Below, piece after piece: positions 5,569-14,395 of a stretch of DNA of 62,289 nt (positions are counted from its first letter, which is position 1; the number at the start of each line of letters is the position of its first letter). The notes below the pieces were generated by a model, which was given only the letters and a program-made list of their open reading frames with translations, was not told where the DNA came from and made no database searches. Both the position numbers and the translations under genes were made by a program. Location of the stretch: IMG/VR virus record IMGVR_UViG_3300006921_003544, positions 1 to 62,289 of that record, one strand, 5' to 3'. The stretch comes from a virus.

Positions 5569-7283
5569 TGTCAGATCGAAAGAGAGAAATAAGAGGATCA
5601 GCTATGGGAGCTGTAGTGACGGGAACTGACCCTCTAAATAAGTTAACAGGTGCACCTCAATCTAATATTGCAACTAACCGTGGTGATCAAGTAAAACGGG
5701 ATGATACTGTTAAGAATTATTATCTAGGTCTGTATGATATAGATGAATGTATTCAATATTATTTTGATAATATAATTCAACCGACGGTAGATGATGGCGA
5801 TGAATACGTAAAAGTACCAATGATATACGGATCACCAGAAAGATGGGTATCTGTACAAGAAAATGGATATCTTAGAGATCAACAAGGAAAACTGCAAATA
5901 CCTGCGATTGTTTATAGAAGAACAAGTGTTGCAAAGAATAGAAATTTAAGTAACAAATTAGATGCTAATAACCCACACTTTCACTATACATTTCAAAAAC
6001 AATACAATAATAGAAACAGATATGATAACTTCGCAGTATTAAATGATATAAAACCAAGCACTGAAAATTATAACGTCGTAATACCAGATTTCGTCACATT
6101 AACGTATGAATGTATTATATGGACAGAATATGTAGAGCAAATGAATAAAATAGTTGAATCTATAAACTATGCAGAAGATTCATATTGGGGAGATCCAGAA
6201 AAATTTAAGTTTAGAGCGTTAGTTGAAGATTTCTCATCGGAAACAGAATTAGCAGCAGATGTAGATAGAACAGTCAGAACAGCATTTACCATTAGTATGG
6301 AAGGATACATAATTCCAGATTCTATGAATAAAGCTCTTGCAGATCAAGAAGTAAAAACATTCGGACCAGTACAAACGGTATTTAATACTAGGGCTGTAGT
6401 TGAACAAGGTGGTCAGTTAATTGAAATTGAGGAAAGTCCTCCAACCACAATACCGGAAGAAGTTGTATTCGAGAATAATTATGCAGTAGAATTTGATGGA
6501 GTAGATGATTGTATAAATCTCGGAAATAATGCACTAATAAAACCTACTGATAATCTGACATATTCTATTTGGGCAAAACTGGCAGATTGGAGCGGACTTG
6601 GCCAACATCAGATAGTTGTACCGATAGGATGTGTTTCAACTGGAGGATGGAAGATAGAGCTCAGAGGAAGTTGGGCTCTAGGTGATGCCATCAAAGTTTC
6701 CAGTGATATACGAGTAACGGATACTGGTGCGGGATCAGGCGGATATCTACATACTATAGGTACCCTAGCACTTGACAGTCAATTTGATGTAAACGGATAC
6801 TCCACAGCTTTAGCTGATAGTAATGGATGGCATCACTTTGCTATGAGTTATCAAAAGGCAACAGGAGTGCACGCATTATACATGAATGGAGTACTAATAG
6901 GTCAAGGCCAAGCAGCAGCTGGAGCTGATATATCTTATCTTAATGCATCTGCGCAAGTAATGTTAGGAGGTGATTGGGCTTCTTCTACTTCTGTTGAATC
7001 GCCATTCGCTGGCCAGTTGGATGAAGTTGCTATATGGAATGACGTACTATCTGCAGATGAAATAGAAGCAATCTATAATAATAAAGTTCCATTTGATCTT
7101 ACATCTAATAATGGACTCTATGACAGTAGTGCATCATTACGAGGATATTGGAGAATGGGCGATCCTAGCGGAACCTGGTCTTTCCCAACGATCAAAGATG
7201 TACATACTGCACATCCATCATTTACGACTTACTTTGATGGAACTATGATTAACATGTCAGCAGATGATATTGTAGCAATTTGA
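5568..7283 (+). CDS. 15: Tail completion protein (gp15-like) fused to a LamG-like domain
   Basis: Residues about 45-265 match the gp15 pattern of T4-like phages: KVPMIYGSPERW early, then a TYECIIWTEYVEQMNKI helix-strand block, and FTISMEGYIIP near the end of the domain. T4 gp15 (272 aa) caps the sheath and tube and connects tail to neck. After a short linker, residues about 305-560 form a concanavalin/LamG-like beta-sandwich: AVEFDGVDDCINLG opening, YSIWAKL, WHHFAMSY, ALYMNGVLIG, LDEVAIWNDVLSADEI. LamG domains bind carbohydrate or protein. The fusion doubles the usual gp15 length and would place an adhesive or decoration domain at the neck. The gp15 part is fairly secure; the ligand is unknown. 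Confidence 0.75.
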   Translation: MSDRKREIRGSAMGAVVTGTDPLNKLTGAPQSNIATNRGDQVKRDDTVKNYYLGLYDIDECIQYYFDNIIQPTVDDGDEYVKVPMIYGSPERWVSVQENGYLRDQQGKLQIPAIVYRRTSVAKNRNLSNKLDANNPHFHYTFQKQYNNRNRYDNFAVLNDIKPSTENYNVVIPDFVTLTYECIIWTEYVEQMNKIVESINYAEDSYWGDPEKFKFRALVEDFSSETELAADVDRTVRTAFTISMEGYIIPDSMNKALADQEVKTFGPVQTVFNTRAVVEQGGQLIEIEESPPTTIPEEVVFENNYAVEFDGVDDCINLGNNALIKPTDNLTYSIWAKLADWSGLGQHQIVVPIGCVSTGGWKIELRGSWALGDAIKVSSDIRVTDTGAGSGGYLHTIGTLALDSQFDVNGYSTALADSNGWHHFAMSYQKATGVHALYMNGVLIGQGQAAAGADISYLNASAQVMLGGDWASSTSVESPFAGQLDEVAIWNDVLSADEIEAIYNNKVPFDLTSNNGLYDSSASLRGYWRMGDPSGTWSFPTIKDVHTAHPSFTTYFDGTMINMSADDIVAI

Positions 7284-7291
7284 GATAATAT

Positions 7292-7513
7292 ATGATTTAT
7301 GTAATATATAATATGGCTGATGTAGCAGCAATTGAATTCGATAAAATACAACAAGAAAGCCAAGATACTTTGAGGCTATCAAACGATAAAACTAAAACCG
7401 TTCTTAAATTCAAAGGTGAAATGCCAGATTTTTTATCTGGTCTGCCACAGTACAATCATTCGGATATTTTATCATTGATGAATACCGCAGAATGGACAAC
7501 AAATCCTGAATAA
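7292..7513 (+). CDS. Small hypothetical protein
   Basis: A 73-aa frame between the tail-completion and coiled-coil genes; I do not recognise it. It is acidic, without membrane segments or cysteines, and contains two Lys-rich strand-like stretches. An internal ATG at 7313 would give a more typical N-terminus (MADVAAIEF, 66 aa). Neither start has a good Shine-Dalgarno. Retention of a full-length frame in a gene-dense structural operon argues that it is real. Confidence 0.5.
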   Translation: MIYVIYNMADVAAIEFDKIQQESQDTLRLSNDKTKTVLKFKGEMPDFLSGLPQYNHSDILSLMNTAEWTTNPE

Positions 7514-7536
7514 GATCAGGTGTTTGGTTCAACTGT

Positions 7537-7550
7537 TATATATGTATATA
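7537..7550 (+). promoter_or_regulatory. Palindrome-like AT element TATATATGTATATA
   Basis: Recurring near-palindromic element found here and, in variants, before the gp26-like (11161), reductase (32543) and RHH (48771) genes. It precedes the coiled-coil gene by 30 bases. It could be a promoter or an operator; function is not visible. Confidence 0.3.
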
Positions 7551-7579
7551 CAATAAAACTATAATAAGGGAGTTATAAA

Positions 7580-7861
7580 ATGGCAACAGAAGAAAAAAAG
7601 TTTGATTCAGAAGAATTAGCAAAGATTAAAGATTTACAAACAAAATATCAAACCATCACTGCTAAGATGGGACAATTAGAAGTAGATCGACTATTATTAG
7701 AACAAGCAATGCAAAGATTGGACAATTCAAAAGGTGAATTAACAGCAGAATATGAAGCTACTCAATCTGACGAAAAACAATTCGTTTCAGATCTAAATGG
7801 TAAATATGGTGCAGGTAATGTTAATATCCAAACGGGTGTATTTACTCCAAACGAAGCTTAA
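7580..7861 (+). CDS. Small coiled-coil protein next to the sheath gene
   Basis: A 93-aa protein. Residues about 8-70 are strongly helical with heptad-like spacing (ELAKIKDLQ...LEVDRLLLEQAMQRL), and it ends in a short Gly/Asn turn-rich tail (KYGAGNVNIQTG). Start after AATAAGGGAG. A helical pair of about 60 residues plus a tail would suit an oligomeric structural or scaffolding role. Position just before the sheath gene suggests a virion or tail-assembly part. No family name is supportable. Confidence 0.6.
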   Translation: MATEEKKFDSEELAKIKDLQTKYQTITAKMGQLEVDRLLLEQAMQRLDNSKGELTAEYEATQSDEKQFVSDLNGKYGAGNVNIQTGVFTPNEA

Positions 7862-7886
7862 AATAATATGTTTTGATTTACTTCTG

Positions 7887-7897
7887 CATATTTATAT
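7887..7897 (+). promoter_or_regulatory. Putative late promoter box (CATATTTATAT) before the sheath gene
   Basis: TATTTATA box embedded in a small inverted repeat GCATAT-TT-ATATGC and followed at once by GGTCGACGACC, another inverted repeat. It lies about 50 bases before the sheath start. It is the only late-type box here flanked by palindromes. Confidence 0.42.
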
Positions 7898-7945
7898 GCG
7901 GTCGACGACCTATATAAATTATCGATAATTAGAGGAGTAAAAAAC

Positions 7946-10546
7946 ATGGCTGAAAGAATTGTAAGTCCTGGTGTATTCACCCGAGAAAAGGACCTTTCGT
8001 TTATACCACAAGGTGTTGCAGAAATAGGTGCAGCAGTAATTGGTACAACCCAAAAAGGCCCAGCGTTCTGGCCTACACAAGTAACATCCTATACTGAATT
8101 TGAATCCAAATTTGGTGGATTGGAAAGAAACCCAACAACATACGTTCCACATACTGTAAGAGAATATTTCGAACAAGGTGGAAATGTAATGACTGTAGTA
8201 AGAGTGTTAAGTTCTGCAGATGTGACTGTAACAAGTCCATTAGTGCTTAAAATTAACAACAAACTACCAGTAGCTGCAGCAACTGCAGTAACTAATACTT
8301 TTTTAAGTAATAGTAAAACACAAAATGTAGTTGCGGTATTATATCCAACAGAACATGAGTTATCAACTAAAGAAATAGATCTTTCCGGATCTTACCTAAC
8401 TCCAGCGGATGCTGTTTTAGCAGCTCCAGCTCTTGAAGCTAATACTCCATCAGCATCATTACAAAACTTCGTACTTAATTTATCAGGATCTGGTAATATA
8501 GCTGCAGGAACTTCAGTACCAGCAAAAGTATCAGGATCAGGTGATGGAACTGCAGGTGCAGCAGGTAGATTATATGGAATATCAGCATCTTTATTATCAT
8601 CAGATAATAACTCAATCGATACGGTATTAGGTACAAGTCCTAATTCAAATAAAGAAGCATATGTAAAATACTACAATAAAAATTTCTCAACTATTGATGA
8701 TGTTAAATCTAATTCCTTTACAATGACAAAAGCTGTAGATCACGTTTACGCTGACGGATATAAAGGAGCTACAACTCCATGGATCACAAACCAACACACT
8801 GGTTCAGCTGCGAATAACCTATTCAAATTACATCACTTAGGTCATGGTGAAACTACAAACTATGAGTTAAAAGTTTCAATACTAAACATGAAAGCGGCAA
8901 ATGGTGGAACGGATACAAAATATCCAACGTTTGATTTACAAATTAGAACGATCAAACAAACTGGTTTACCATTTGATACACCATATACGTATGATGCAAC
9001 AGATGATAATAGTGCAAACGTAATAGAGGAACATACTGGATTAACATTAGACCCAAGAGATGCAAATTATATTGCAAGAAGAATTGGTGATAGATACTAC
9101 AAAATCAATGATGAAGGTAAAGTAATTGGTGTTAACACGTATCCAAATGTATCTAGATATGTAAGAGTAGAAGTATCCAATGGGGTAAGCACACAAGGAA
9201 TACCAGTAACAGATGCTCCATTTGGATATAGAGCGATTGAACAAGCAATTCCAACAACAAACGATCTATACATGCCTTCAGCATCGTTTGTAACAAAACA
9301 AGAAGAAACTACAGACGTTTATGAACCGGGTGTATTCTACGGATTTAATTTCGATTTCGATGCAACTGATAATGTAAACTACTTAGCGCCAATACCTTCA
9401 ACGGCAAATGGTGTAGGAACAAATGTAGACTTCAACTTATCTAACATGCAAGGTCATGTATCAGCATCAGATGTATTGACAGGAAATGTAGCAAATGCTG
9501 GACATATGATCTCAATGGGATCTCAAACTCATCAACTGCAAAGAAGATTTATGGTTCCTTTCCAAGGTGGCCAAGATGGAAAACACCCTGCACAGGTTTC
9601 TTTGACTGGTAAGAGTATGGGTACAACGAATACATTCGGAATGGACTTTACAGATTCTACATCAGAAGGAACAAAAGCATATAAAAAAGCAATAAATGCT
9701 TTATCAAACGCAGATGAATTTGACATCAACTTATTATCAATGCCAGGAATTATTACAGACAATTGTCCTGCAACGATTACTCATGCGATCAATAAGACTG
9801 AACAAAGAGGTGATTGCTTCTTAATCTTTGATGTAGCAAAATATGACGATTCCCCAACACAAGTAGTATCAACAATTATTGCAGATGCAGTAACAGACGC
9901 AGCTAATTATGATTCAAGCTATGCAGGTACTTACTTCCCATGGTTAATGTATAATGATGCGGTAAATAATATAGTAACACCATTGCCACCATCAGCTATA
10001 ATGCCAAGTGTATTCGCAGGAAATGATTCAGGCGGTGGAGAACCATGGTTCGCACCAGCTGGTCTTAATAGAGGACTATTAACTGCAATCACTGAAGCAA
10101 CTACAAGGTTAACTCACGGTGAAAGAGATACTTTATATGAAGGTAGAGTAAACCCAATTGCAACATTCCCTAATCAAGGAGTTTGTGTATGGGGTCAAAA
10201 AACTTTACAAAAGAAAAGATCAGCACTTGATAGAATTAACGTAAGAAGATTGTTAATAGCATTGAAAAAATTCATTGCATCGACTTCAAGATTCTTAGTA
10301 TTCGAACAAAACACCGCAGCAACGAGAAATAGATTCTTAGGTACTGTTAATCCATACTTAGAAAGCGTACAACAAAGAAGCGGTTTACATGCATTCAAAG
10401 TAGTAATGGATGATACTAACAATACCCCAGATGTAGTAGATAGAAACAAATTAGTAGGTAATATAATGATCCAACCAACAAGAACGGCAGAATTTATTGT
10501 ATTAGACTTCACAGTATTACCAACAGGAGCTACTTTTCCAGAGTAA
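7946..10546 (+). CDS. 18: Tail sheath protein (gp18-like)
   Basis: Contractile sheath subunit. The N-terminus (ERIVSPGVFTREKDLSFIPQ, then AEIGAAVIGTTQKGPAF, residues about 3-40) and the C-terminal core (RSALDRINVRRLLIALKKFI at about 753-772, then NRFLGTVNPYLESVQQRSGL, ending with a hydrophobic beta strand) are the conserved domains that interlock neighbouring sheath rings. The 866-aa length exceeds T4 gp18 (659 aa); the extra is in the middle (about 110-500), the variable outward-facing domains. AGAGGAG precedes the ATG. It is followed by the tube gene, the standard order. A contractile tail makes this a myovirus. Confidence 0.96.
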   Translation: MAERIVSPGVFTREKDLSFIPQGVAEIGAAVIGTTQKGPAFWPTQVTSYTEFESKFGGLERNPTTYVPHTVREYFEQGGNVMTVVRVLSSADVTVTSPLVLKINNKLPVAAATAVTNTFLSNSKTQNVVAVLYPTEHELSTKEIDLSGSYLTPADAVLAAPALEANTPSASLQNFVLNLSGSGNIAAGTSVPAKVSGSGDGTAGAAGRLYGISASLLSSDNNSIDTVLGTSPNSNKEAYVKYYNKNFSTIDDVKSNSFTMTKAVDHVYADGYKGATTPWITNQHTGSAANNLFKLHHLGHGETTNYELKVSILNMKAANGGTDTKYPTFDLQIRTIKQTGLPFDTPYTYDATDDNSANVIEEHTGLTLDPRDANYIARRIGDRYYKINDEGKVIGVNTYPNVSRYVRVEVSNGVSTQGIPVTDAPFGYRAIEQAIPTTNDLYMPSASFVTKQEETTDVYEPGVFYGFNFDFDATDNVNYLAPIPSTANGVGTNVDFNLSNMQGHVSASDVLTGNVANAGHMISMGSQTHQLQRRFMVPFQGGQDGKHPAQVSLTGKSMGTTNTFGMDFTDSTSEGTKAYKKAINALSNADEFDINLLSMPGIITDNCPATITHAINKTEQRGDCFLIFDVAKYDDSPTQVVSTIIADAVTDAANYDSSYAGTYFPWLMYNDAVNNIVTPLPPSAIMPSVFAGNDSGGGEPWFAPAGLNRGLLTAITEATTRLTHGERDTLYEGRVNPIATFPNQGVCVWGQKTLQKKRSALDRINVRRLLIALKKFIASTSRFLVFEQNTAATRNRFLGTVNPYLESVQQRSGLHAFKVVMDDTNNTPDVVDRNKLVGNIMIQPTRTAEFIVLDFTVLPTGATFPE

Positions 10547-10589: not shown

Positions 10590-11078
10590 ATGGCACAATT
10601 ATTAGACTCAAATGAAATATTCTTTACACCCTTTGAACCAAAGGTTGCGAATAGGTTCATTATGTTTATTGAAGGTATCCCAGCTTATCTTGTAAAGAAA
10701 GCATCAAGACCTACGGTAACATTTGAAGAGGTTGTATTAGATCACATCAACGTACAAAGAAAAATTAAAGGTAAAGCGACGTGGTCAGATGTAACTGTAG
10801 AATTATATGATCCGGTTGTTCCATCAGCTGCACAAGCTGTAATGGAGTGGGTTAGATTACACCACGAATCGGTAACAGGTAGAGCAGGATATTCAGATTT
10901 TTATAAAAAAGATGTAACTTTTAACATGCTAGGACCAGTAGGTGATAAAGTTGAAGAATGGACACTAAAAGGTGCTTACATCGGAGAAGCAGGATTTGGT
11001 GAAATGGATTGGTCAACTCAAGATCCAATGTCAATCTCATTAACATTGAAATACGACTACGCAATACTACAATTCTAA
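10590..11078 (+). CDS. 19: Tail tube protein (gp19-like)
   Basis: Subunit of the inner tail tube inside the sheath. The 162-aa length is nearly identical to T4 gp19 (163 aa). Family features: N-terminal FEPKVANRFIMFIEGIPAYL (about residues 11-30), a central W-containing strand with DVTVELYDPVVPSA, a VMEWVRLHHESVTGR helix, and a C-terminal SISLTLKYDYAIL beta hairpin. The start has AGAGGAG at good spacing. It is followed by an intrinsic terminator, consistent with a high-copy transcript unit of its own. Confidence 0.95.
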   Translation: MAQLLDSNEIFFTPFEPKVANRFIMFIEGIPAYLVKKASRPTVTFEEVVLDHINVQRKIKGKATWSDVTVELYDPVVPSAAQAVMEWVRLHHESVTGRAGYSDFYKKDVTFNMLGPVGDKVEEWTLKGAYIGEAGFGEMDWSTQDPMSISLTLKYDYAILQF

Positions 11079-11205: not shown

Positions 11206-12033
11206 ATGGCACAACACCAAATGACAGATGAAGAGTTAAAACAAAAACTCGTAGCAGATTCAATTCAATCAGAAACATATAAATTTCCAACAGAGGAAGT
11301 TGAATTACCAAGTAAAGGACATTTCTACTCAGATGATAGTCCACTATCGATAGGAAAGATAGAAATGAAATATCCAACAGCAAAAGAAGAGGATATTCTT
11401 ACTTCACAAAATCTTATAAAAAATGGTACAGTAATTGACAAATTCATGCAGTCTATTATCGTATCAAAAATTAACTACAATGATTTATTGATCGGTGATA
11501 AGAACTCTCTTATGATAGCGGGACGTATATTAGCATATGGCGCTGAGTATCCAATAGAATCAATATGCCCTGAATGTGGTGCAAAATCTACTGAAGTAGT
11601 TAATTTATCTGAAGTAGAGGATAGAGATATAGACTTTGAGTCCTACACAAAGGGAGCCAAAGTATTCGAATTCAAACTTCCAGCATCGAAGCGATCTATT
11701 ACATACCAGTTAATGACACATGGAATAGAGCGTAAGGTAGAAGATGCCTTAAAAATAGCTAAGAAGAGATCAAAACGAACTGGAGTAGATCCAGAATTAA
11801 CTACACGAATGAAGATGTGTATTTTATCCGTTGATGGTAATGATGATAGATCTCATGTTGATAATTTCATTGAAACGGAATTCTTATCAAGGGATGCACA
11901 AGCATTTAGAAACCAAATAAAATCCCATACCCCAGATGCAAACATGGTGTATGATTATGAGTGTGGCCAGTGTGGTTACGAGGAGGTGTCGGATTTCCCG
12001 ATCAACGCCGGGTTTTTTTGGCCTACATCCTGA
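11206..12033 (+). CDS. 26: Tail assembly chaperone / baseplate hub protein (gp26-like)
   Basis: T4 gp26-like family member of 275 aa, lying between tube and tape-measure genes. An N-terminal EVELPSKGHFYSDDSPL segment (about residues 31-47) leads into a helical core with DILTSQNLIKNG. Two CxxC pairs, C121/C124 (CPECG) and C253/C256 (CGQCG), form a probable zinc ribbon. It ends in the family-typical FFWP. The last codons run through seven T residues (12013-12019), where a one-base shift opens a second conserved frame. By position it corresponds to the G protein of the G/GT tail chaperone pair of other tailed phages. Start after AAAGGAG. Confidence 0.8.
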   Translation: MAQHQMTDEELKQKLVADSIQSETYKFPTEEVELPSKGHFYSDDSPLSIGKIEMKYPTAKEEDILTSQNLIKNGTVIDKFMQSIIVSKINYNDLLIGDKNSLMIAGRILAYGAEYPIESICPECGAKSTEVVNLSEVEDRDIDFESYTKGAKVFEFKLPASKRSITYQLMTHGIERKVEDALKIAKKRSKRTGVDPELTTRMKMCILSVDGNDDRSHVDNFIETEFLSRDAQAFRNQIKSHTPDANMVYDYECGQCGYEEVSDFPINAGFFWPTS

Positions 12034-12313
12034 TCACAGACAAGATCTATTCCAACAAATATTTGACCTAACCTATTATGGCAAGGGGTTCACTCACAAT
12101 GAGGTATATCATATGCCTATTTGGATGAGGCGTAATTACCTTCAACTTGTAGTGAAAGCGGTAAAGCATCAGAATGAAGCTAACGACAACGCTCACAAAA
12201 AAGATAGCCATAAATTCGCAACAGATCAGCAAAATTCTAAGACTAGAATACAACGTCCTGATATTAAAACGAAAAAAAATATCATGGTGAATCCTAAGCT
12301 AACGAGACGTTGA
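11936..12313 (+). CDS. +1-frame extension of the tail chaperone (GT-like domain)
   Basis: Open frame in +1 relative to the gp26-like gene. The first 28 codons merely shadow gp26; the conserved part begins at 12020 (HRQDLFQQIFDLTYYGKGF, then YHMPIWMRRNYLQL), followed by a charged tail. This short 'Y..MP.WMRR.Y' domain commonly follows gp26 in T4-like phages. It has no good ATG after the overlap: the first in-frame ATG downstream lies inside the conserved block. Expression could come from slippage on the T7 run, giving a 368-aa fusion, or from an ATT codon at 11993 that sits six bases after a perfect AGGAGG (11981-11986). The gene directly downstream is the tape measure, as expected for GT. Confidence 0.65.
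   Translation: MQTWCMIMSVASVVTRRCRISRSTPGFFGLHPDHRQDLFQQIFDLTYYGKGFTHNEVYHMPIWMRRNYLQLVVKAVKHQNEANDNAHKKDSHKFATDQQNSKTRIQRPDIKTKKNIMVNPKLTRR
12013..12019 (+). other. T7 slippery site joining the G-like and GT-like frames
   Basis: Seven T residues are read as Phe-Phe in both frames. A short inverted repeat (CCCG 11997-12000 / CGGG 12009-12012) abuts the run on its 5' side, and a hairpin there is known to favour transcriptional slippage. Loss of one T, or a +1 ribosomal shift, joins the frames. Confidence 0.55.
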
Positions 12314-12355: not shown

Positions 12356-14395
12356 ATGGAAGAATCTAAATTCAAATCATTTATGTCTAGTGCCGTATCG
12401 GGCACTAAGAAATTTGGAGCAGCAGCTAAAAATGCAGGAACCAGTGTTAAAAATAACATTGGAAAATCCATGAGTAGTGTAGCTGAGACGACAAAAGACA
12501 TAGTTAATCAATCTGGAGAAATTGGAGCTAAACTAGCTGCAGTGGGGGGAGCCGTTGTCGCAGGAATAATGAATCCAATGAAAGGACTCGTTGGTCTATT
12601 CGCATTATCATTAAAATATGCAACAGAATGGGAAGTTAGAGCGACCGCAACAGCTCGAGCTACCGGTTTAGTTGGTGAAAATCTCGGTGAAGCACAGAGG
12701 CAAGTTACTGGACTACATGAAAGGTATAGACACTTTGGTGAATCCATTGATGGTAGTATTCAAACAATTCAAGGAATGAATAACGCTCTAGGTAATGTTG
12801 ATTATGCAACAGCTCAAATGGCAGATCATATAACTAGATTCTCCATTGGAGCTGGTATTGGTAAAGATATATCAGCAAAAATTATGTCTAATATTATGTT
12901 GACGCAAGGTGCCACTGAAAAGACGGCAATGCAAGCTCAGAATTTTGCAAAAGACTTATCAAATGCAGCAGGTGTACCAATTAACTTGGTAATGGATGAT
13001 CTTGCAAATATATCAGATGATGTACATGGATTCTTAGGATCGAATCCTAAAGAATTAGTAAAAGCTACTGTAGAAGCCAGACGTTTAGGTCTATCATTAG
13101 AATCCACAGCAAAGATAGCTAATGGATTATTAGATTTTGAATCAAGTATAGAAGCAGAAATGGAAGCTCAGGTTCTTACTGGTAAAACTCTTAATTTTGA
13201 TAAAGCTAGACAATTAGCTATGGACGGAGATCAAGTAGGAGCTGCAAAAGAGATGTTAAGACAGGTAGGTGGATTATCTGAATTCAATAAAATGAATGTT
13301 GTGCAAAAGCAAGCATTAGCAAAAGCTACTAATATGTCTGTAGGAGAGATGAAAAAGGCTCTTGGTACTGGAGAAAAAGAAGCAGATCTAGAAGAACAAA
13401 GAGCTGAAGATATGGCAAAAGCTCAAATGGATCAAGCTAAAGGTGTAAAAATAATTGCAACTACAATGGAAGGCTTAAATGCCACACTTCATAGGTTAGG
13501 AAAAGTTCTTGGTGATATTCTAATGCCGTATGCTCAAAAATTTATGAAGTTTTTAGGCTCAGAAGACGCAACAACTATGATAGCAGATGTTGAAACATTT
13601 GTAGTAACTAAACTTACTCCTGCGATTAGAGAAATAGTAGGCTGGCTTGGACAGGTTTGGGATTGGTTAACTGTAGTAGGAGCTGATGGTGAAACTAATA
13701 TTGGTAAGATCTTTGACGCCTTCGCAGCAGTGGGAAGTTTCTTAGGAAATTTAATAATGCAAATAGCAGCATTCAATGAAAAAGTTGGTGCTGGAGCTGC
13801 CAGCGTCGCAAGGTTTGTATTTAAGACTTGGGATGGCATGATAAAACTACTTACGAAAGCTTTCCCAAAAGGAATCAAAGGTATGTTTGGAATGGCGGCA
13901 AAGGCAGTTGGTAAAGCTGGATCAGTACTTCTAAAGGTATTCAAAAAAGTACCAATTATTGGAGCATTGATAAGTTTTGGATTCGCAGTTTCTAAATTCA
14001 GAAAAGGTGATATGCTTGGAGCTGGTATGGAAATAGCTTCTGGTTTAGCATCATTTATTCCAGGAGTAGGAACTGGTATATCCATGGCTATAGACACAGC
14101 CAGTATGGTTCGTGATGTATCAGCATCAGATGATGAAGCAGCCGATTTCATATCTCGTGGCGGTAGAATGCAAAAATTCCGTAAAGATGATTTAGTTATT
14201 GGAGGAACAAAGTTAGATGGCTTATTGAGACAAGCTAATGCTACTGTAGGAGGAGGTGGAGGAGGAGATAATACAGCTATTCTGACAGCGTTAAATAATA
14301 TTGCGAATTTGTTATCGCAACCAGGTGAAGTAATAATGGATGGTAAGAAAGTAGGTGAAACTATCGCTATGTCAAAAAGCTACGTGGGGAACTAA
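12356..14395 (+). CDS. Tail tape measure protein (gp29-like role)
   Basis: A 679-aa, mainly helical protein in the tape-measure position right after the G/GT pair. Hydrophobic stretches lie at about residues 59-86 (GAKLAAVGGAVVAGIMN, then GLVGLFALSL) and 530-585 (VPIIGALISFGFAV, then SGLASFIPGVGTGISMAID), as in tape measures that later contact the host membrane. Between them runs a long helical region rich in Ala/Gln/Lys. A GGGGGG linker near 635 leads to a C-terminal tail with EVIMDGKKVGETI, a common tape-measure ending. In T4, gp29 (590 aa) sets tail length; this longer protein would predict a somewhat longer tail. The start follows GCGGAG; the stop is followed directly by the next ATG. Confidence 0.8.
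   Translation: MEESKFKSFMSSAVSGTKKFGAAAKNAGTSVKNNIGKSMSSVAETTKDIVNQSGEIGAKLAAVGGAVVAGIMNPMKGLVGLFALSLKYATEWEVRATATARATGLVGENLGEAQRQVTGLHERYRHFGESIDGSIQTIQGMNNALGNVDYATAQMADHITRFSIGAGIGKDISAKIMSNIMLTQGATEKTAMQAQNFAKDLSNAAGVPINLVMDDLANISDDVHGFLGSNPKELVKATVEARRLGLSLESTAKIANGLLDFESSIEAEMEAQVLTGKTLNFDKARQLAMDGDQVGAAKEMLRQVGGLSEFNKMNVVQKQALAKATNMSVGEMKKALGTGEKEADLEEQRAEDMAKAQMDQAKGVKIIATTMEGLNATLHRLGKVLGDILMPYAQKFMKFLGSEDATTMIADVETFVVTKLTPAIREIVGWLGQVWDWLTVVGADGETNIGKIFDAFAAVGSFLGNLIMQIAAFNEKVGAGAASVARFVFKTWDGMIKLLTKAFPKGIKGMFGMAAKAVGKAGSVLLKVFKKVPIIGALISFGFAVSKFRKGDMLGAGMEIASGLASFIPGVGTGISMAIDTASMVRDVSASDDEAADFISRGGRMQKFRKDDLVIGGTKLDGLLRQANATVGGGGGGDNTAILTALNNIANLLSQPGEVIMDGKKVGETIAMSKSYVGN

What the first reader, a model, noticed from the sequence alone, without database searches (positions are those of the whole stretch)
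11981..12313. Candidate G/GT-type frameshift (or slippage) at a T7 run in a T4-like phage
The gp26-like gene ends in FFWPTS across seven T residues; in the +1 frame the same run reads Phe-Phe and continues into a conserved 'Y..MP.WMRR.Y' domain without a normal start codon. Order is tube, then this pair, then tape measure, matching the tail-chaperone G/GT arrangement of lambda-like phages, where frameshifting makes the fusion. A CCCG/CGGG inverted repeat abuts the run, favouring transcriptional slippage. There is also an AGGAGG six bases before an in-frame ATT (11993), an alternative non-AUG start. The shift needed is +1 (or -2), not the usual -1.
Basis: partly seen in the sequence, partly recalled or inferred. 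Interest (0 to 1): 0.78.

Follow-up and report, generated by a model that had tools for sequence, protein, structure and literature searches.

The report
Frameshift-made tail chaperone in T4-like phages
This phage gene ends in a run of seven T's where the ribosome very probably slips forward one base, making a longer version of a tail-building helper protein; many related phages keep the same signal, so it is a real but broadly familiar phage trick.

Summary
Window gene 11206-12033 is a T4 gp26-like (PF12322) protein ending GGG TTT TTT TGG CCT ACA TCC TGA. The +1 frame carries a second domain up to 12313, before a tape-measure-like gene. In 129 homologous loci (78 representatives below 90% DNA identity) the best-scoring frame for this domain is never the gp26 frame: 65 representatives have it in +1, 13 in -1. 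At the +1 junction 55 of 65 have TTT TTT TGG; 37 of 65 have no ATG/GTG/TTG in the +1 frame between its last upstream stop and the site. Past the gp26 stop the +1 frame evolves under purifying selection (median dN/dS 0.29; 2.25 and 1.0 in the other frames). A covarying hairpin lies 6 nt after the run in 26 of 55 T7 relatives, but not in the window. Best reading: a tail-assembly chaperone (lambda G/GT type) whose long form is made by +1 ribosomal frameshifting. The class is known; a 2022 paper on T4-like chaperone genes (title seen, abstract recalled, text not held) probably covers the principle. Product, rate and function are unshown. In passing: injection-system relatives carry a G_GGG_GAR junction, suggesting -1 shifting.

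The parts
10590..11078 (+). tail tube protein (gp19-like)
   Evidence: PHROG 4542 E 1.5e-29
11206..12033 (+). gp26-like protein, proposed short tail assembly chaperone (TAC-N), 275 aa
   Evidence: PF12322 above its cut-off; 129 loci compared
12013..12021 (+). slip site TTT TTT TGG (T7 at 12013-12019); the +1 reading goes on as TTT TTT GGC
   Evidence: 55 of 65 +1 representatives identical
12031..12033 (+). TGA stop of the unshifted frame
12014..12313 (+). +1-frame C-terminal domain (TAC-C, DUF6760-like); the fusion from 11206 is 368 aa
   Evidence: below cut-off; fusion translated; purifying selection among 54 representatives; mostly helical model, mean pLDDT 79, pTM 0.51
11936..11938 (+). first ATG of the +1 open frame, no SD match; rival start
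11980..11995 (+). GAGGAGG and ATT 11993, rival non-AUG start; GAG GAG are also Glu-Glu codons of gp26
11997..12012 (+). CCCG ... CGGG 4-bp inverted repeat next to the run
   Evidence: not picked as a terminator
12356..14395 (+). tape-measure-like gene
   Evidence: 28% identity over 258 aligned positions to the protein annotated tail tape measure in phage immuto

Best explanation
The pair is one tail-assembly-chaperone gene read in two ways. Most ribosomes stop at TGA 12031 and make the gp26-like short form (TAC-N). A minority slip +1 on UUU UUU UGG: Phe-tRNA re-pairs with UUU one base on, while UGG waits in the A site, and GGC is read next. This adds a C-terminal domain of about 97 residues (TAC-C) and gives a 368-aa TAC-NC. 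By analogy with lambda gpG/gpGT, TAC-N would coat the tape measure and TAC-C would recruit tube subunits. Shown here: the conserved junction, the conserved +1 domain, selection on it, and the lack of a conserved start. Inferred: that slippage happens, that it is ribosomal and +1, its rate, and the function.
For: 129 loci, best-scoring frame of the T domain +1 in 111, -1 in 18, gp26 frame in none; 78 representatives, 65 and 13. The second codon of the site is YTT before TGG in 61 of 65. No ATG/GTG/TTG upstream in the +1 frame in 37 of 65; none upstream nor in the first 25 codons downstream in 25 of 65. After the gp26 stop, median dN/dS 0.29 in +1 against 2.25 (gp26 frame) and 1.0 (-1) (54 of 65 used, 47 in the frame control). 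The four TTC TTT TGG representatives allow +1 but hardly -2 re-pairing. Hairpin with at least 6 of 7 pairs in 26 of 55 T7 representatives, 0 of 55 in each of six slid registers; covariation score above 500 of 500 shuffles and all slid versions on all 55. The -1 phage group has T_TTT_TTY in 10 of 10 frameshift-type representatives and forms one clade. UUU is named in a paper as one of the two next most slippery codons when the codon before the RF2 stop was varied (PMC10885494, passage).
Against: No expression data. The window itself lacks the hairpin (3 of 7 pairs; fold z -0.09) and any close SD-like stimulator. In five window ORFs the shifted codon GGC (14 of 294 Gly) is rarer than the waiting UGG (23), against the usual +1 rule. 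ATGs exist upstream in the window's +1 frame. L254, L258 and L008 carry the T domain with its own ATG. T4 gp51's C-terminus does not match the T profile. A separate long gene as in T4 is not excluded: my profile finds one gp26-like gene in each of 8 of 8 records, but it finds neither gp26 nor gp51 in T4 itself. Synonymous sites are near saturation (pooled pS 0.78). Shuffle controls do not remove relatedness.
Confidence: 0.8

Rival explanations
1. Transcriptional slippage: RNA polymerase drops one U on the T7 run and the ribosome reads a fused mRNA.
For: T7 is in 55 of 65 representatives; long T runs can slip (general knowledge).
Against: 10 of 65 lack T7, some with runs of only 3 or 4, yet keep the +1 domain; the downstream hairpin fits a ribosomal stimulator.
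Confidence: 0.08
2. -2 ribosomal frameshift, as in phage Mu, giving an extra Phe.
For: Same final frame on T7; a hairpin 6 nt downstream is more usual for backward shifts (recalled).
Against: TTC TTT TGG relatives hardly re-pair at -2 (judged by codon-anticodon rules).
Confidence: 0.08
3. Internal initiation of a separate T protein (ATG 11936, 11951 or 11957, or ATT 11993).
For: In-frame ATGs and AGGAGG-ATT exist in the window; L254 and L258 do have a separate ATG.
Against: +1-frame stop within 10 codons upstream in 45 of 65; near-cognate start with SD core in only 9 of 65; +1 residues directly after the run (FFG) are invariant in the 20 aligned of 65.
Confidence: 0.04
4. Sequencing or assembly error; the gene is really fused.
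For: Homopolymer run.
Against: Same run in another contig and in 54 other representatives; relatives without T7 are also split.
Confidence: 0.01

Closest known systems
Lambda gpG/gpGT tail assembly chaperones (review PMC5009743, passages seen)
   Same: Short and frameshift-extended forms; chaperones of tape measure and tube. The review says -1, -2 or +1 is used in different tailed phages.
   Different: +1 rather than lambda's -1; gp26/PF12322 protein family. The review excepts T4 from G-T frameshifting.
T4-like TAC genes: Vladimirov, Gautam and Davidson 2022, Virology 566:9-15 (not held; title seen in reference lists; abstract recalled: frameshifting in several T4-like groups, T4 itself uses genes 26 and 51)
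   Same: Very probably the same gene family and principle. Here T4 gp26 and gp51 both match PF12322 over its whole length, gp51 with about 48 extra C-terminal residues.
   Different: Whether it reports the +1 direction, the TTT TTT TGG signature or the hairpin could not be checked.
Pakpunavirus Adele TAC, -1 at GTTTTT (PMC12846349, passages seen)
   Same: Poly-T shift site and uninterrupted second frame ahead of the tape measure.
   Different: -1 shift, another phage group.
+1 sites: E. coli RF2 CUU_U (named in a passage of PMC10885494) and influenza PA-X UUU_CGU (recalled)
   Same: CUU_UGG in two relatives and UUU_CGU in one.
   Different: No stop codon in the A site at the proposed site; no SD-like element next to it.

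Membership tests
Frameshift tail assembly chaperone (TAC-N/TAC-NC, G/GT type) | Gene pair lies between tail tube and tape measure | tested here: met
Frameshift tail assembly chaperone (TAC-N/TAC-NC, G/GT type) | Second frame overlaps the first and has no start of its own | tested here: inconclusive
   Window has upstream ATGs without SD; 37 of 65 +1 representatives have none; 3 of 78 representatives have their own ATG
Frameshift tail assembly chaperone (TAC-N/TAC-NC, G/GT type) | Conserved slippery site at the 3' end of the first frame | tested here: met
   55 of 65 +1 representatives identical
Frameshift tail assembly chaperone (TAC-N/TAC-NC, G/GT type) | Fusion protein made in vivo as a minor form | not testable with these tools
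   no proteomics
Frameshift tail assembly chaperone (TAC-N/TAC-NC, G/GT type) | Binds tape measure, absent from the virion | not testable with these tools
   needs experiment
PF12322 (T4 gp26/gp51) | Score over the gathering cut-off | tested here: met
   44.6 against 24.5 bits
PF20546 DUF6760 | Score over the gathering cut-off | tested here: not met
   23.2 against 27 bits, E 7.4e-5: related at most, not filed as a member
T4 arrangement (separate short gene 26 and long gene 51) | Second, longer gp26-like gene in the genome | tested here: inconclusive
   One copy in 8 of 8 records with profile A7, but A7 finds neither T4 copy; PF12322 finds one in the window fragment and one in 3 of 8 records, none in 5
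Classical -1 X_XXY_YYZ site | Heptamer in phase with the -1 frame and T domain in -1 | tested here: not met
   Window: base before the run is G and the T domain is in +1; met in the L021-type group only
+1 frameshift site of RF2 type | SD-like element next to the site and stop codon in the A site | tested here: not met
   Within 18 nt upstream AGGAG in 1 and GGAG in 3 of 55; A site is UGG

The most novel reading that the evidence does not exclude
The gp26/DUF6760 chaperone pair is joined by frameshifting throughout contractile tails, with the direction re-invented: +1 on UUU_UGG (with a repeatedly gained or lost hairpin) in many T4-like phages, -1 on U_UUU_UUY in another phage group, and -1 on G_GGG_GAR in bacterial contractile injection systems of cyanobacteria and Streptomyces, for which the searches listed no report.
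Probability: 0.5. Interest if true: 0.7.

Novelty: new member of a known kind. Interest (0 to 1): 0.52.

Why it matters
A 2016 review names T4 as the exception to G-T frameshifting (PMC5009743, passage). A large gp26-type family with a nearly invariant +1 site offers many natural variants for working out what makes ribosomes shift forward; one paper says that no general motif is known for that (PMC10885494, passage). It also means that annotation of these phages, and probably of contractile injection systems, misses the long chaperone: in five annotated phage records looked at, the second domain is a short hypothetical ORF or not annotated.

Tried and rejected
Sequencing error: rejected. Transcriptional slippage as the shared mechanism: disfavoured by the relatives without T7. 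SD-like stimulator next to the site: not found. The ATT start: not conserved. RNAalifold on 61 junctions gave no consensus structure; the hairpin was seen on reading the individual folds and then tested on all 55 T7 representatives. Because the structure came from these sequences, it tends to beat slid registers for that reason alone. On all 55, two of the five measures were reached by some shuffles: pairs changed on both sides by 24 of 500, pair types by 9 of 500. A2 (27 rows) was picked for pairing, so its figures are biased. T4 gp51 C-terminus against the T profile: no match. Mixed alignment A6 misaligned the T-only rows and was not used. The T-domain model was not searched against folds. 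SP-15 gp26 against plasmids: nothing. Single copy as proof against a second long gene: withdrawn, because the T4 control failed; T4 has both copies by PF12322.

Rows dropped: L009 (Atu_ph07; never in the count; its -1 frame after CAT TTT TTC GCA TGA looks T-like but has an early ATG), L071 (contig ends before the junction), L015, L232, L261 and L262 (partial), L024 and L229 (duplicates). The 129 still hold duplicate contigs (L011 and L034 are one record); the 78 do not at 90%. L008, L254 and L258 (own ATG) are counted under -1. For dN/dS 11 of 65 rows were left out as short, gapped or divergent.

Literature: 10 searches; passages seen of PMC10885494, PMC5009743 and PMC12846349; for all other papers listings only. 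'DUF6760' and 'baseplate hub assembly chaperone' gave 0 papers. The library lacks most subscription papers, so absence of a report is weak evidence.

Full report
The junction. At 12010-12033 the gp26-like frame reads GGG TTT TTT TGG CCT ACA TCC TGA. From 12014 the +1 frame reads FFGLHPDHRQDLFQQIF...HMPIWMRR... to 12313. The first protein is PF12322 (T4_baseplate) over its cut-off; the second resembles DUF6760 below its cut-off. The neighbours are sheath, tube and a tape measure. Pairs of this kind are known as tail assembly chaperones (passages).

Named relatives. tblastn found 13 phage records with the first protein and 4 with the second. Flavobacterium phage immuto, Microcystis phage Mel-JY01, uncultured phage LR756508, Bacillus SP-15, Listeria LIS04 and Streptococcus GXN1 show a second open frame in +1 at the FF or FL end; GXN1's match to the T-domain HMM is weak, 9.5 bits. 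LR756511 has the domain behind its own ATG overlapping the stop.

Wider sample. 129 loci with a readable junction were scored with an HMM of the T domain in the three forward frames around the gp26 stop: best frame +1 in 111, -1 in 18, gp26 frame in none. The HMM was seeded with 13 of the +1 sequences; scores for the frameshift-type -1 group are weak (7 to 18 bits). At under 90% DNA identity there are 78 representatives, 65 in +1 and 13 in -1. The +1 sites are TTT TTT TGG 55, TTC TTT TGG 4, TTT CTT TGG 2, and one each of TTT CTA TTC, TTT TTT CAC, TTC TTT CGT and TTT TTT AGT. The ten -1 sites of frameshift type all read NNT TTT TTY, the classical U_UUU_UUY; the other three -1 rows (L008, L254, L258) have their own ATG.

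The signal is selected. The codon before the site ends in T in 0 of the 55 T7 cases and in 10 of the 10 -1 cases; before other Phe codons of gp26 it ends in T in 100 of 593 and 39 of 123. So the +1 class lacks, and the -1 class has, the base that permits backward slippage; relatedness inflates this. Phe-Phe is TTT TTT in 57 of 62 junctions but 1 of 12 elsewhere in gp26.

The second frame is translated from the site. No ATG, GTG or TTG lies upstream in the +1 frame in 37 of 65; 25 of 65 also have none in the first 25 codons downstream. A +1 stop lies within 10 codons upstream in 45 of 65; an SD-like hexamer lies within 60 nt upstream in 20 of 65, but a near-cognate start at the right distance from an SD core only in 9. 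From the ninth codon after the run, past the gp26 stop in all but one of the rows (stop distances), to the first conserved Met, median dN/dS is 0.29 in +1, 2.25 in the gp26 frame and 1.0 in -1; pooled pN/pS is 0.41, 1.78 and 0.96. Synonymous sites are near saturation, so only 423 pairs gave a ratio in +1, against 940 and 994 in the other frames.

Is there a second, long gene as in T4? In T4, gp26 and gp51 both match PF12322 and are 25% identical. A profile of this family found one gene in each of 8 of 8 records, among them the complete genomes of immuto (160 kb) and Mel-JY01 (190 kb), and one each in SP-15 and LIS04. But the same profile found neither copy in T4, so a divergent long gene is not excluded.

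Which slip. One rule does not cover all sites. A second codon UUU or CUU followed by UGG covers 61 of 65. In the TTC TTT TGG group only the second codon can re-pair, and well only at +1. L004 fits a first-codon UUU_C slip; the Firmicute phages fit UUU_U or UUU_C slips. These are judgements from codon-anticodon rules, not results.

Hairpin. In 26 of 55 T7 representatives a stem of at least 6 of 7 pairs (25 with all 7) and a 4-nt loop starts 6 nt after the run; 0 of 55 do so in each of six slid registers. On all 55 the covariation score exceeds 500 of 500 shuffles and every slid version, and all 7 pairs show changes on both sides (24 of 500 shuffles reach that). Mean fold z just downstream is -1.45 (55 sequences) against -0.47 in gp26 controls (110). 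The gp26 tree needs at least 7 gains or losses of the hairpin label, 4 forced by starred branches. The window has 3 of 7 pairs, so it does without.

Evolution. L254 and L258, with a separate ATG, sit inside the +1 clade beside immuto (midpoint root, long branches warned of), so loss of frameshifting appears derived there. The -1 group is one side of a branch in 100% of 200 bootstrap trees.

Injection systems. DUF6760 hits were found in 6 of 42 mixed genomes and 15 of 146 genomes of the phylum of the Calothrix genome G016; 0 of 14 control genomes. Two loci were checked for neighbours: Pvc16_N, sheath, tube and VgrG-like proteins in one; AAA, VgrG-like, baseplate J and a below-cut-off sheath match in the other. 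For the rest 'injection system' is inference. The first protein there is about 120-145 aa and aligns to the C-terminal half of the phage gp26 profile (probability 90%, E 1.7e-6), though single sequences do not match PF12322 (4 tested). In 20 of 22 loci GGGGGA lies in the T frame just before the domain, and in these the T domain is in -1. L222 (Clostridium) is in -1 without this site. L225 (Streptacidiphilus) has one G fewer, its T domain in +1, and ATG and GTG in that frame. Five loci (L265, L267, L268, L269, L276) have no ATG/GTG/TTG in the T frame there. The Streptomyces ones, and a few cyanobacterial ones, have GTG or ATG near the stop, so reinitiation stays possible for them.

Verdict. A real, conserved junction of a tail assembly chaperone gene, best explained by programmed frameshifting, +1 in this group. 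The class is known and the T4-like case probably reported in 2022; the +1 signature, the hairpin and the injection-system site are the parts I did not find in the papers held.

Noticed in passing
L223, L224, L226-L228, L263-L277 (bacterial injection-system type loci): 20 of 22 loci carry xxG GGG GAR at the end of the short chaperone, with DUF6760 following in the -1 frame as GG and then usually V or I; suggests -1 frameshifting.
   Followed up: partly
L225, T domain near 1501: Streptacidiphilus locus with one G fewer at that site: T domain in +1 with ATG/GTG in frame; a real variant or a sequence error.
   Followed up: no
L021-L023, L230, L231, L233-L242: Phage group with the same T domain reached by -1 at U_UUU_UUY, one clade.
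   Followed up: partly
L254 and L258: Relatives that carry the T domain as a separate ATG-started ORF; probably secondary loss of frameshifting.
   Followed up: partly
L221 (T4) 6803-7429 and 7480-8229: T4 gp26 and gp51 are both full-length PF12322 members on opposite strands; gp51 has about 48 extra C-terminal residues that do not match the T profile.
   Followed up: partly
L009 near 3819 (Agrobacterium phage Atu_ph07): gp26-like gene ends CAT TTT TTC GCA TGA with a T-like open -1 frame; not counted.
   Followed up: no
window 13694-14131, within the tape-measure-like gene: Stretches of the protein match PHROGs named endolysin and peptidase.
   Followed up: no
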